A stretch of DNA of 64,000 nt from Neisseria sp. 83E34 (GTDB taxonomy: Bacteria; Pseudomonadota; Gammaproteobacteria; Burkholderiales; Neisseriaceae): positions 1 to 64,000 of the forward strand of contig NZ_LGYH01000002.1 in assembly GCF_001308015.1 (NCBI RefSeq), written 5' to 3'. The position numbers were made by a program, and so were the translations under genes. Below, piece after piece: positions 20,252 through 26,139 of this stretch (its first letter is position 1; the number at the start of each line of letters is the position of its first letter). Under the pieces are notes generated by a model. It did no database searches and was not told the DNA's origin. It worked only from the letters and a program-made list of their open reading frames with translations.

Positions 20252-22858
20252 TCAAGCCGCGGTACCTTCCAAGAAGTCCTGTGCGAAGCGTTGCAGCACG
20301 CCGCCGGCTTCGTAGATCAGCACTTCTTCGGCGGTGTCCAAACGGCAGGTTACGGGTACTTCAACCGTTTCGCCGTTTTTGCGGTGGATCACCAGCGTTA
20401 AGTCGCAGCGCGGTTCGCGTTTGCCGATGACGTCGTAGGTTTCGGTGCCGTCCAATTCCAGGGTGTGGCGGTTAACGCCTTCTTTGAATTGCAGTGGCAG
20501 CACGCCCATGCCGATGAGGTTGGTGCGGTGGATGCGCTCGAAGCCTTCGGCCACAATGGCTTCCACGCCGGCGAGGCGCACGCCTTTGGCGGCCCAGTCG
20601 CGGCTGGAGCCTTGGCCGTAGTCGGCGCCGGCCACGATAATCAGCGGCTGTTTGCGGTTCATATAGGTTTCAATCGCTTCCCACATACGCATTACTTGGC
20701 CTTCGGGTTCTACGCGGGCGAGCGAACCTTGCTTGGTGGTGCCGTCTTCGTTTTTCACCATCTCGTTGAAGAGTTTGGGATTGGCGAAAGTGGCGCGTTG
20801 GGCGGTCAAGTGGTCGCCGCGGTGGGTGGCGTAAGAGTTGAAGTCCTCTTCAGGCAGGCCCATTTTGGCGAGGTATTCGCCTGCCGCGCTGGTGGGCAGA
20901 ATAGCGTTGGAGGGCGACAAGTGGTCGGTGGTGATGTTGTCGGGCAGAATCGCCAGCGGACGCATGCCTTTTAAGGTGCGCTCGCCTGCCAACGCGCCTT
21001 CCCAGTATGGCGGGCGGCGGATGTAGGTGGACATGGGGCGCCAGTCATACAGCGGGCTGGGCGCTTTTTCGGCGGTTCCGGTGTCGAACATCGGGATGTA
21101 GACATCGCGGAACTGCTGCGGTTTCACATATTTGGCCACGATTTCGTCGATTTCTTCGTCGGTCGGCCAGATGTCTTTCAGGCGGATTTCTTTGCCGTTT
21201 GAAACGCCCAATACGTCGTTTTCAATATCGAAGCGGATGCTGCCTGCAATCGCGTAGGCCACGACCAGCGGCGGCGAAGCGAGGAAGGCTTGTTTGGCGT
21301 AGGGGTGGATGCGGCCGTCGAAGTTGCGGTTGCCCGACAATACGGCGGTGGCGTACAAATCGCGGTCGATGATTTCCTGCTGGATTTTCGGATCGAGCGC
21401 GCCGGACATGCCGTTACAGGTAGTGCAGGCGAAGGCGACGATGCCGAAGCCCAGCTTTTCCAGCTCGGGCAGCAAGCCTGCTTCTTTCAGATAAATCTCC
21501 GCCACTTTGGAGCCGGGGGCGAACGAAGATTTCACCCAGGGTTTGCGGGTTAAGCCCAGCTCGTTGGCTTTGCGGGCCAACAAGGCAGCAGCGACCACGT
21601 TGCGCGGGTTGGAAGTGTTGGTGCACGAGGTGATCGCCGCGATAATCACCGCTCCGTCGGGCATTTTGCCGTCTGAAGGTTCTTCGTAAGGCGCGGCGAT
21701 GCCTTTTTTAGCCAAGTCGGCTGTGGCCACACGCGCATGCGGGTTGGACGGGCCGGCCATGTTGCGGGTAACGGTAGAGAGATCGAATTTCAACACGCGC
21801 GGATACACGGCGGTTTTGAGTGCGTCTGCCCACAAGCCTGCGGTTTTGGCGTAGTTTTCCACCAATTTCACTTGCTCGTCGTCGCGGCCGGTGAGTTTCA
21901 AATAATCGATGGTTTGCTGGTCGATGGAGAACATCGCCGCCGTGGCACCGTACTCCGGCGTCATGTTGGAAATGGTTGCGCGGTCGCCAATCGACAGGCT
22001 TTCTGCGCCTTCGCCGAAGAACTCGACAAACGCACCGACCACGCGCTCTTTACGCAAAAATTCGGTTAAAGCCAATACGATATCGGTGGCGGTAATGCCG
22101 GGCTGGCGTTTACCGGTCAGCTCCACGCCCACAATATCGGGCAGGCGCATCATCGAAGCGCGGCCGAGCATCACGGTTTCGGCTTCCAAGCCGCCCACGC
22201 CTACGGAAATTACGCCCAGCGCGTCAACATGCGGGGTATGCGAATCGGTGCCGACACAGGTATCGGGGAAGGCTACGCCGTTTCTTACTTGAATTACGGG
22301 CGACATTTTTTCCAAGTTGATTTGGTGCATGATGCCGTTGCCCGCCGGAATCACATCCACATTTTCAAAGGCGGTTTTCGTCCAGTTGATAAAGTGGAAA
22401 CGGTCTTCGTTGCGGCGGTCTTCGATTTCGCGGTTTTTGCGGAACGCATCGGGGTCATAGCCGCCGCACTCCACCGCCAGCGAGTGGTCGACAATCAGCT
22501 GGGTTTGCACCACCGGATTGACTTTGGAAGGGTCACCGCCTTTTTCGGCAATCGCATCACGCAAGCCGGCCAAATCCACCAGCGCGGTCTGCCCCAAAAT
22601 ATCGTGGCACACCACACGCGCGGGGAACCACGGAAAGTCGATTTCCTGCTTGCGCTCAATCAGTTGGCGCAGCCAGCTTTGCAGCGTGGGCAAGTCCACA
22701 TTATCGGCGCGGTTAACCAGGTTTTCGGCCAAAATGCGCGAAGTGTACGGCAGCGTATCGTAAGAGCCGGGCTTGATGTCTTCACACGCGGCGCGCGCGT
22801 CGTAGTATTCGAGATGAGTACCCGGCAGGGGTTTGCGGTAGATTTGGTTGGTATTCAT
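20252..22858 (-). CDS. acnD: Fe/S-dependent 2-methylcitrate dehydratase AcnD
   Basis: 868 residues, the usual AcnD length. It is an aconitase-family enzyme that dehydrates 2-methylcitrate to 2-methyl-aconitate, which PrpF then isomerises. The three [4Fe-4S] ligands are visible: Cys412 in TSCTNTS and Cys478/Cys481 in ACTTCNG. The C-terminal swivel domain has DNITTDHLSPS and GADYGQGSSRDWAAKGV. The aconitase start DTLPYTSRILAENLVNR is near residue 35. AAGGAC precedes the ATG. It is last of the minus-strand set prpB-prpC-eamA-acnD. It contains a meningococcal-type uptake core (GCCGTCTGAA, 21668-21677), foreign to this genome. Its helper gene prpF lies 12.6 kb away at 35460. Confidence 0.96.
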   Translation of the reverse strand: MNTNQIYRKPLPGTHLEYYDARAACEDIKPGSYDTLPYTSRILAENLVNRADNVDLPTLQSWLRQLIERKQEIDFPWFPARVVCHDILGQTALVDLAGLRDAIAEKGGDPSKVNPVVQTQLIVDHSLAVECGGYDPDAFRKNREIEDRRNEDRFHFINWTKTAFENVDVIPAGNGIMHQINLEKMSPVIQVRNGVAFPDTCVGTDSHTPHVDALGVISVGVGGLEAETVMLGRASMMRLPDIVGVELTGKRQPGITATDIVLALTEFLRKERVVGAFVEFFGEGAESLSIGDRATISNMTPEYGATAAMFSIDQQTIDYLKLTGRDDEQVKLVENYAKTAGLWADALKTAVYPRVLKFDLSTVTRNMAGPSNPHARVATADLAKKGIAAPYEEPSDGKMPDGAVIIAAITSCTNTSNPRNVVAAALLARKANELGLTRKPWVKSSFAPGSKVAEIYLKEAGLLPELEKLGFGIVAFACTTCNGMSGALDPKIQQEIIDRDLYATAVLSGNRNFDGRIHPYAKQAFLASPPLVVAYAIAGSIRFDIENDVLGVSNGKEIRLKDIWPTDEEIDEIVAKYVKPQQFRDVYIPMFDTGTAEKAPSPLYDWRPMSTYIRRPPYWEGALAGERTLKGMRPLAILPDNITTDHLSPSNAILPTSAAGEYLAKMGLPEEDFNSYATHRGDHLTAQRATFANPKLFNEMVKNEDGTTKQGSLARVEPEGQVMRMWEAIETYMNRKQPLIIVAGADYGQGSSRDWAAKGVRLAGVEAIVAEGFERIHRTNLIGMGVLPLQFKEGVNRHTLELDGTETYDVIGKREPRCDLTLVIHRKNGETVEVPVTCRLDTAEEVLIYEAGGVLQRFAQDFLEGTAA

Positions 22859-22898
22859 GGTTAAGTCCTTTTTCAGTGTTTTTCTTTTGGTATGTTTT

Positions 22899-22923
22899 TT
22901 CAGACGGCATCAGGCCGTCTGAA
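22899..22923. terminator. Inverted pair of canonical (AT/AG) DUS behind eamA
   Basis: TTCAGACGGCAT is the exact AT-DUS (ATGCCGTCTGAA) in reverse, and AGGCCGTCTGAA is the exact AG-DUS. They face each other with a 1-nt gap. This dialect belongs to other Neisseria and not to the surrounding genome. Confidence 0.85.
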
Positions 22924-22951
22924 AATAAATCTGCATCAGTTTTTATAGATT

Positions 22952-25116: not shown

Positions 25117-25149
25117 TAGGGTTCTCCTGTGTAGATTTAAGTGTTGTTC

Positions 25150-25184
25150 TTCAGACGGCCTCGGATATATACAGGCCGTCTGAA
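25150..25184. terminator. Inverted AG-DUS pair between prpB and prpC
   Basis: TTCAGACGGCCT (25150-25161) and AGGCCGTCTGAA (25173-25184) are exact AG-type uptake sequences in opposite orientation with an 11-nt loop. The type is foreign to the rest of the window. As a hairpin inside the prpB-prpC unit it may lower downstream expression. Confidence 0.8.
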
Positions 25185-25257
25185 AATAATTTTCAAACGG
25201 TTGAACGTACATGCTTAAAGCTTATACGCCGGTTTGGCTGATTATTATTGTTGAATC

Positions 25258-26139
25258 TTATTTGCTTGAACTGAAAAGCTCATCCAGCTTTTGCTCAAAG
25301 TCGTGGTAGTTGAGGTGCTCGTACAACTCGGCACGGGTCTGCATGGTATCGACCACATTGGCTTGTGTGCCGTCGCGCATAATCGCTTCATACACATTCA
25401 GTGCGGCTTTGCTGGCGGCGCGGAAAGTAGAAAGCGGATACAACACCAGTTTCACGCCGTTATCAGCCAGCTCTTTCTGCGTGTAAAGCGGGGTGGCGCC
25501 GAATTCGGTAATGTTGGCCAACACAGGCACTTTTACGGCTTCGGCAAATTGTTTGTACATGCCCAACTCGGTCATGGCTTCGGGGAAAATCATGTCGGCA
25601 CCGGCTTCCACGCAGGCTTGCGCACGCTCGATGGCGGCATTCAAACCTTCTACGGCGAGCGCATCGGTACGCGCCATAATCACAAAATTTTCATCCACAC
25701 GCGCATCTACGGCTGCCTTGATGCGGTCAACCATCTCCGCTTGCGACACGATGGCTTTATTCGGGCGGTGGCCGCAGCGTTTTTGGGCCACTTGGTCTTC
25801 GATATGCACGGCAGCCACGCCCGCGCGCTCGAAATTGCGGATGGTGCGTGCAATATTGAATGCACCGCCCCAACCCACATCGATATCAACCAGCAAAGGG
25901 GTGTCGACATTGTCGGTAATGCGGCGGGCATCAATCAGCACATCTTCCATTGTGGTAATGCCCAAATCGGGAATACCGCAAGAGCAGGCAGCAACGCCGC
26001 CGCCGGAAAGATAAATGGCTTTGAAACCGCTGTGCGTCGCCAAACGGGCAAAGTAGGCATTGATACAGCCGACTACGGCTAAGGGATTGGATTCTTGAAC
26101 GGCCTGGCGGAACCGCAGGCCGGCAGAGTGGATACTCAT
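25258..26139 (-). CDS. prpB: 2-methylisocitrate lyase PrpB
   Basis: 293 residues of the isocitrate lyase/PEP mutase superfamily. It splits 2-methylisocitrate to pyruvate and succinate, the last step of the methylcitrate cycle. The signature KRCGHRP, with the catalytic Cys, is near residue 121. Metal-binding acidic residues lie in LLVDIDVGWG and VHIEDQ, and the substrate-binding IMARTDA follows. AGGAG precedes the ATG. First gene of the cluster. No regulator (prpR-like) is adjacent. Confidence 0.96.
   Translation of the reverse strand: MSIHSAGLRFRQAVQESNPLAVVGCINAYFARLATHSGFKAIYLSGGGVAACSCGIPDLGITTMEDVLIDARRITDNVDTPLLVDIDVGWGGAFNIARTIRNFERAGVAAVHIEDQVAQKRCGHRPNKAIVSQAEMVDRIKAAVDARVDENFVIMARTDALAVEGLNAAIERAQACVEAGADMIFPEAMTELGMYKQFAEAVKVPVLANITEFGATPLYTQKELADNGVKLVLYPLSTFRAASKAALNVYEAIMRDGTQANVVDTMQTRAELYEHLNYHDFEQKLDELFSSSK

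What the first reader, a model, noticed from the sequence alone, without database searches (positions are those of the whole stretch)
20252..26139. Canonical-type DUS inside a TG-wad genome: prp/acnD block looks imported
By eye, all ten-base canonical cores (GCCGTCTGAA or its reverse) in the window lie in two places. This block has them at 21668, 22899, 22914, 23884, 25150 and 25175; the other two are in cysI. Outside, dozens of copies of the local TG-wad word are found and no canonical core. Inside 20.2-26.1 kb the only local core is the hybrid at 23904. Since Neisseria take up DNA with their own dialect, the simplest reading is that prpC-eamA-acnD came from a species using AT/AG-DUS.
Basis: partly seen in the sequence, partly recalled or inferred. 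Interest (0 to 1): 0.8.

Follow-up and report, generated by a model that had tools for sequence, protein, structure and literature searches.

The report
Foreign-dialect propionate genes in Neisseria
A set of genes for using propionate in this Neisseria carries the DNA "import tag" of other Neisseria species, and its family tree shows that it has been swapped across that supposed species barrier more than once; this adds a well-marked case to a known kind of gene traffic.

Summary
In detail: six canonical DUS cores lie in the prpB-prpC-eamA-acnD block, with no TG-wad 12-mer for 7.5 kb.
Trees of rpoB, gyrB and prpF keep the three prp-bearing TG-wad species together; acnD, prpC, prpB and eamA reject that (AU p 1.6e-38 to 0.007), with canonical-DUS species among them: G014 and G053 share about 7 kb at 96.7%. 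prpF, 9 kb away with local DUS, is the native control. Canonical sites common in other species but absent from native rpoB, gyrB and prpF survive in acnD. cysI repeats the pattern (98% to G035).
So the locus crossed between dialect groups, and its DUS are of AG type. It is not a fresh single import: G000 and N. wadsworthii seem to share it by descent (acnD apart), it has one site in three species, and the direction of the latest exchanges is unresolved; some may have run back to canonical-DUS species. Mobile prp clusters, peregrine DUS and dialect mapping are published: a new member of a known kind.

The parts
18975..18986 (+). last local TG-wad DUS before the block (left edge)
   Evidence: exact TGCCTGTCTGAA
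19084..19407 (+). cupin-domain gene; leftmost gene shared with canonical-DUS species G053 and G049, where it also lies on the acnD side
   Evidence: Cupin_2; 87-89% nt to G053/G049 and no similarity further left in the 20 kb loci
19465..20115 (-). 216-aa ORF, GC 33%, no family found; lies in a stretch (about 19398-20170) absent at this place from N. wadsworthii and G053, where G014 carries a different insert
20252..22858 (-). acnD, Fe/S-dependent 2-methylisocitrate dehydratase
   Evidence: TIGR02333 1849 bits, cut-off 1420; 92-92.5% nt to G053, G049 and N. wadsworthii
21668..21677 (+). canonical DUS core inside acnD, at a site exact in 15 of 25 non-wad rows and 3 of 3 TG-wad rows
22899..22923 (.). 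canonical DUS pair upstream of acnD, same form in G048, G014 and G053
22952..23833 (-). EamA-family transporter gene between acnD and prpC; found there also in G048, G014, G053 and G052, and (64-65% aa) in G009 and G050
   Evidence: PF00892
23884..23916 (.). mixed-dialect inverted pair after prpC: canonical core (-) and local-type core (+)
23965..25116 (-). prpC, 2-methylcitrate synthase (start by homology; the longest ORF starts at 25212)
   Evidence: NF009006 696 bits, cut-off 550
25150..25184 (.). canonical DUS pair between prpC and prpB; N. wadsworthii has a local-type pair there
25258..26139 (-). prpB, methylisocitrate lyase
   Evidence: NF008455 534 bits, cut-off 353
26470..26500 (.). 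first local TG-wad DUS pair right of the block (right edge); similarity to G053 ends near 26246
35460..36626 (+). prpF, partner of acnD, flanked by TG-wad DUS: native control for the same pathway
   Evidence: TIGR02334 766 bits; tree holds G000, G048, G014 as one clade, 100
46295..48061 (+). cysI with two intragenic canonical cores between local DUS; second cross-dialect locus in the window
   Evidence: TIGR02041; 98% to G035 over the gene

Best explanation
The block is a methylcitrate-cycle (propionate) locus whose sequence, with its DUS, came into the TG-wad lineage from AG-DUS Neisseria after the TG-wad dialect had become established, most likely by natural transformation and homologous recombination (mechanism inferred). 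It entered before G000 and N. wadsworthii split, probably in the common ancestor of G000, N. wadsworthii and G014, where it sits at one site between a cupin gene and agcS; the pathway's fourth gene, prpF, stayed native. Parts were exchanged again later, in a direction not settled here: a tract of about 7 kb between G014 and a G053-like species, and the acnD-cupin end between N. wadsworthii and a G049-like species. The foreign cores have lasted through a speciation, so they act as a lasting tag of origin.
For: Six canonical cores, mostly AG type, and no TG-wad 12-mer. rpoB and gyrB put G000, G048, G014, G037 together, with the canonical-DUS species compared at 75-82% nt; acnD of G000 is 92-92.5% to G053 and G049, and the acnD tree interleaves the dialects (G048 with G049, support 96; G014 with G053, support 100). 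AU tests reject G000+G048+G014 as one clade: acnD 1.6e-38, prpC 0.001, prpB 0.007, eamA 0.0009 (7 rows); prpF, rpoB and gyrB hold it at 100. G014-G053 96.7% over 7.5 kb in one BLAST piece; outside it only the cupin aligns. Retention control: five intragenic canonical sites in native genes (rpoB 27 and 8 of 36 non-wad rows, gyrB 12 of 15, prpF 8 and 7 of 19) are exact in none of the TG-wad rows (5, 6 and 4 rows, G036 included); the acnD site is exact in 3 of 3 and a second in 2 of 3. G000-G048 4-fold differences in prpC and prpB (0.21, 0.17) match rpoB (0.21) and gyrB (0.17). Other canonical loci behave alike: cysI and, by identity only, murE-murF.
Against: With the two suspect partners G053 and G049 left out, G000 is only slightly closer to the other species (7-8 of them, one, G027, with muc-type DUS at its fetched loci) than these are to each other (acnD 84.8 against 82.0, prpC 83.9 against 80.8, prpB 80.9 against 78.2), and native prpF shows the same shift (78.2 against 76.0); so distances do not orient the transfer and the direction rests on the DUS. 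acnB and cysD are also close to canonical-DUS species (88-95%) although flanked by local DUS, so dialect labels miss some exchanges; for acnB one clade is not rejected (p 0.17). In the retention control three more listed sites (one rpoB, two gyrB) were not counted because most TG-wad rows have gaps there, and prpC, prpB, eamA and acnB offered no site. No acnD or prpF was found in G037 (prpB and prpC were not sought genome-wide), but no clean empty site was seen because its left flank differs. All trees are quick-mode single-gene trees.
Confidence: 0.78

Rival explanations
1. The block has long been resident in the TG-wad clade (one old entry) and the similarity to G053 and G049 comes from export: TG-wad species donated it to canonical-DUS species, helped by its canonical DUS. 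(This overlaps with the best explanation on the origin and differs on the later exchanges; the odds are not exclusive.)
For: One site in G000, N. wadsworthii and G014 with a shared prpB upstream region, while the flanks of G053 match none of the other acnD-region loci compared; G000-G014 divergence in the block (86.5-92% nt) is like that of neighbouring genes (88.5-92%); G053 carries a TG-wad core at the prpC end as in G014, where G052 has a canonical one; the acnD tree needs three label changes, and by my own count the two histories tie.
Against: G049 shares right-flank genes with canonical-DUS species G046 and G025, so its locus looks native there; the gene between eamA and prpC in G014 and G053 is also in G052; one TG-wad core among eleven canonical ones in G014 is not what long residence would be expected to give.
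Confidence: 0.35
2. Retention: the canonical cores are leftovers from before the TG-wad dialect arose and the locus was never transferred.
For: The intragenic acnD cores are sites shared by many non-wad species; distances to species other than G053 and G049 are not strikingly small.
Against: One clade of the three TG-wad species rejected for all four genes; about 7 kb shared at 96.7% between species with 81% rpoB; comparable cores in rpoB, gyrB and prpF are absent; canonical cores on C1 are clustered.
Confidence: 0.06
3. Assembly contamination or a mobile element carries the block.
For: Some canonical-rich contigs of this genome are short (C9-C11, 8.7-9.1 kb; Rhs repeats found on C9) and other canonical stretches hold primase-type or T6SS genes.
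Against: The block lies inside a 293 kb contig with native DUS and genes on both sides, at the same place in two other genomes; the families found for its ORFs include no integrase, transposase or conjugation gene.
Confidence: 0.02

Closest known systems
prp (propionate/methylcitrate) genomic island of N. meningitidis, NMB0430-0435 (Catenazzi 2014, PMC4441257; passages seen)
   Same: prpB, prpC, acnD with a further gene between prpC and acnD; described there as horizontally acquired, with other flanking genes in other Neisseria
   Different: here prpF is 9 kb away and native, the gene between prpC and acnD is EamA-type where PMC12671195 (passages) lists a TSUP-family transporter for N. meningitidis, and the DUS dialect of the block differs from that of the host
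Peregrine DUS and commutation between dialect groups (Frye 2013, PMC3630211; abstract, first part of Results, sections on commutation and DUS counts read)
   Same: foreign-dialect DUS in a genome read as traces of interspecies exchange; N. wadsworthii 9715 is the wadDUS genome there
   Different: in what I read they give counts (mainly mucDUS) and one folP fragment; here named loci, breakpoints, gene trees and a native control from the same pathway
DUS-dialect mapping of genomic islands (Hughes-Games 2020, PMC7371117; abstract and section 9 read)
   Same: islands poor in the host DUS and rich in another dialect point to the donor group
   Different: its focus is ICEs and large islands in other dialect groups; the words wadsworthii, wadDUS and prp do not occur in the held main text

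Membership tests
Foreign-dialect DUS island (criteria as in Hughes-Games 2020) | Host DUS under-represented | tested here: met
   0 TG-wad 12-mers in 7,495 b, 6.6 expected
Foreign-dialect DUS island (criteria as in Hughes-Games 2020) | Another dialect over-represented | tested here: met
   6 canonical cores in 5,888 b, 0.9 expected at the genome mean
Foreign-dialect DUS island (criteria as in Hughes-Games 2020) | Boundaries defined against genomes without the island | tested here: inconclusive
   Edges defined against canonical-DUS species; G037 has no block beside agcS but its left flank differs, so no clean empty site
Neisseria prp (methylcitrate) cluster | prpB, prpC and acnD in order | tested here: met
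   each above a curated cut-off
Neisseria prp (methylcitrate) cluster | prpF in the same cluster | tested here: not met
   prpF at 35460-36626, about 9 kb from prpB, with local DUS; not next to acnD in G048 (12 kb), G014 and G049 (55-60 kb) or G053 (about 1 Mb) either
Neisseria prp (methylcitrate) cluster | acetate/propionate kinase gene in the cluster | not tested
   no kinase search was made; the seven proteins scanned at the block and its edges gave other families or none
Integrative and conjugative element | integrase and conjugation genes | tested here: not met
   ORFs scanned in the block: cupin, a 216-aa unknown, acnD, eamA, prpC, prpB

The most novel reading that the evidence does not exclude
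Bilingual loci: once a canonical-DUS locus has entered a TG-wad genome, its foreign tags make it readable by canonical-DUS species again, so such loci form a shared gene pool that shuttles across the dialect barrier in both directions while DUS-native loci do not. Signs of it: prp and cysI (trees) and murF (identity) each link several TG-wad and canonical-DUS species, whereas prpF, rpoB and gyrB do not; G053 bears a TG-wad core in its prp locus; and seven canonical-DUS genomes (G010, G016, G019, G020, G035, G049, G053) hold 27-78 TG-wad words where the other 34 non-wad genomes of the genus hold 0-7. acnB and cysD, close across dialects but with local DUS, speak against a strict rule.
Probability: 0.25. 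Interest if true: 0.62.

Novelty: new member of a known kind. Interest (0 to 1): 0.42.

Why it matters
DUS dialects are described as barriers to recombination between Neisseria species (PMC3630211, abstract). Here the dialect letters work as a tag that survives a speciation and shows which housekeeping genes crossed (prp, cysI, murE-murF, with narG, purL and mfd as untested candidates), with a native gene of the same pathway as control. That gives a set of natural cases in which to ask how leaky the barrier is, in which direction, and how fast foreign tags are erased.

Tried and rejected
GC and GC3 as edge markers: GC3 of acnD 0.73, eamA 0.63, prpC 0.66, prpB 0.63 against 0.58-0.73 for six flanking genes; no step.

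G036, a TG-wad genome, has an rpoB outside the wad clade, two gyrB copies (on two contigs) that fall next to it, and 4% contamination. I did not name it in the clade tested by AU; its rows stayed among the others for rpoB, prpC, prpB and prpF and were removed for gyrB. Its prp contig carries TG-wad DUS, prpC is 86% to G000, and acnD is cut by the contig end.

acnB as a further native control failed: it seems exchanged too. Orienting the transfer by distances failed.

Stretches L257-L260 were chosen on C1 after seeing the list of its cores, so their zero canonical cores are by selection and not a test; L255 (18 kb on C32, taken for acnB) had 0 canonical and 15 TG-wad words. Of six C1 islands fetched, four have no TG-wad 12-mer between their canonical cores and two (L243, L246) are mixed; a lone core at C1:177186 was left out.

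Rows used and dropped: rpoB tree 41 of the 44 genomes with a match (G031, G039, G040 not used); gyrB and acnB were sought in 20 chosen genomes of 46; acnD, prpC and prpB trees 28 rows each from the 29 loci fetched plus the window (rows under 90% coverage dropped); G018, G023, G029, G038, G042 and several genomes outside the genus that have acnD were not used for these trees; prpF tree 24 rows from 23 genomes of the 35 with a match, one paralogue dropped before the AU test; cysI tree 10 genomes. BLAST pieces under 250 b were left out of the listings.

Paper searches showed, in their listings, no account of canonical-DUS islands in TG-wad species; only a PMC library was searched.
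Full report
Terms. 'Canonical-DUS species' means non-wad genomes with the GCCGTCTGAA core; the AG letters were checked only at loci of G053, G049, G019, G052, G022, G044 and G009. G048 is taken as N. wadsworthii 9715 because contig length and acnD position agree.

What was checked. The window lies on contig C12 (293 kb) of a 2.42 Mb, 40-contig genome, G000; G048 is its nearest relative by rpoB (94%) among 41 genomes. Genome counts: TG-wad 12-mer 2119, canonical 10-mer 373, reversed canonical 9. On contig C1 the 42 canonical cores occupy 13 of 47 ten-kb bins; 27.8 would be expected. 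So canonical DUS form islands, and the prp block is one of several.

Genes. On the minus strand: prpB (25258-26139), prpC (23965-25116), an EamA-type transporter (22952-23833) and acnD (20252-22858); the three enzymes pass curated cut-offs, the transporter only the Pfam family's. prpF, which published work pairs with acnD (PMC4441257, passages), is at 35460-36626 in the TG-wad part of the window. The set would run the methylcitrate cycle; this is inferred from the families.

Dialect survey. Of 46 genomes of the genus, five use TG-wad (G000, G014, G036, G037, G048: 1322-2119 words). Seven canonical-DUS genomes hold 27-78 TG-wad words and the other 34 hold 0-7. The TG-wad genomes hold 48-481 canonical cores. 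Traffic therefore seems to run both ways between these groups.

Trees. rpoB (41 rows) and gyrB (21 rows) hold G000, G048, G014 and G037 as one clade. acnD (28 rows) gives (G000,((G048,G049),(G053,G014))), G049 and G053 being canonical-DUS species; prpC and prpB pair G000 with G048 and G014 with G053. AU tests reject G000+G048+G014 as one clade for acnD, prpC, prpB and eamA and for cysI (p 0.009), not for acnB (p 0.17); prpF, rpoB and gyrB have the clade at 100. All trees are quick-mode.

Edges. Within the loci compared, G000 aligns with G053 only from 19084 to about 26246 (with the 216-aa ORF stretch missing in G053); the next local DUS are at 18975 and 26470. In G014 the G053-like tract runs from just before the canonical pair behind acnD into prpB, where identity drops from 98 to 86%; the region upstream of prpB is of the type shared by the three TG-wad species, while by eye that of G053 resembles G052. 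Between cupin and acnD, G000 and G014 carry different inserts at the same point: an AT-rich 216-aa ORF, and a GmrSD-type plus a HEPN-type gene.

Import or retention? In native genes, five intragenic canonical sites found in 7 or more non-wad rows are exact in none of the TG-wad rows; in acnD one site is exact in all three TG-wad rows and another in two. With the trees, this makes simple retention unlikely. cysI is a cleaner case: two intragenic canonical cores at the sites used by G035 and G010, local DUS just outside the gene in G000, G048 and G014, 98% identity to G035 over the gene (96% over the longer BLAST piece), while G037 has a copy at 84% without canonical cores. In the canonical stretch further along the contig, murF is 94% to G010 and G049 and murE 89% to G049, but G053, G035 and G019 reach only 75-82% there; the TG-wad stretch before it is 67-80% to canonical-DUS species apart from short pieces.

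Direction and age. G000-G048 differences in prpC and prpB match rpoB and gyrB, so the block was there before the two species parted. Whether the latest exchanges ran from AG to TG-wad or back is open: without G053 and G049, distances of G000 to the other species are only slightly smaller than those among them, and prpF behaves alike; G053 bears a TG-wad core as in G014. Dialect also misses some exchanges: acnB and cysD are close to canonical-DUS species with local DUS around them.

Known background. Mobile prp clusters (PMC4441257, passages; PMC12671195, passages), peregrine DUS and dialect-dependent transformation (PMC3630211, sections), ComP-DUS matching (PMC3868556, passages) and island finding by dialect (PMC7371117, abstract and one section) are in print. 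The listings of my paper searches showed no account of canonical-DUS islands in TG-wad species. The case is therefore a well-supported new member of a known kind.

Noticed in passing
window 92-11605 (+): A 3837-aa trimeric autotransporter adhesin ORF (ESPR, YadA head, stalk and anchor) fills the first 11.6 kb, with no TG-wad 12-mer and one lone canonical core at 9292.
   Followed up: partly
window 45125-46096: cysD is 92-95% identical to canonical-DUS species G053, G010 and G035, away from their cysI, yet has local TG-wad DUS on both sides: an exchange without a dialect label.
   Followed up: partly
L244:4941-8618, L245:2468-6433, L250:184-3669 (own genome, C1 and C7): narG, purL and mfd hold 3, 3 and 4 intragenic canonical cores, with local DUS on both sides (narG, purL) or on one side before the contig start (mfd): candidates for single-gene replacement.
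   Followed up: no
L254:10228-16000 (own genome, C12:74.2-80.0 kb): murE to murF carry 11 canonical cores and one TG-wad word and reach 89-94% to G049 and G010; penA lies just before.
   Followed up: partly
L249 (own genome, C6:1-20000): A stretch with a type VI secretion sheath gene (TssC; the other ORFs were not searched) carries nine canonical cores and no TG-wad 12-mer.
   Followed up: no
window 19398-20170; L143:5760-7918 (G014): The cupin-acnD junction beside a DUS pair holds different inserts in two species (AT-rich 216-aa ORF; GmrSD-type plus HEPN-type genes): a possible insertion hotspot.
   Followed up: partly
G036 (C65 and C20 gyrB; C17 prp, L160): Genome G036 uses TG-wad but has two gyrB copies, an rpoB outside the wad clade, and a prp locus with TG-wad DUS: a mixed assembly or a second TG-wad lineage.
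   Followed up: partly
G048 L141:12903-12922: Where G000 has a canonical DUS pair between prpC and prpB, N. wadsworthii has a palindromic local-type pair; the spacer around it aligns poorly, so this may be replacement rather than conversion in place.
   Followed up: partly
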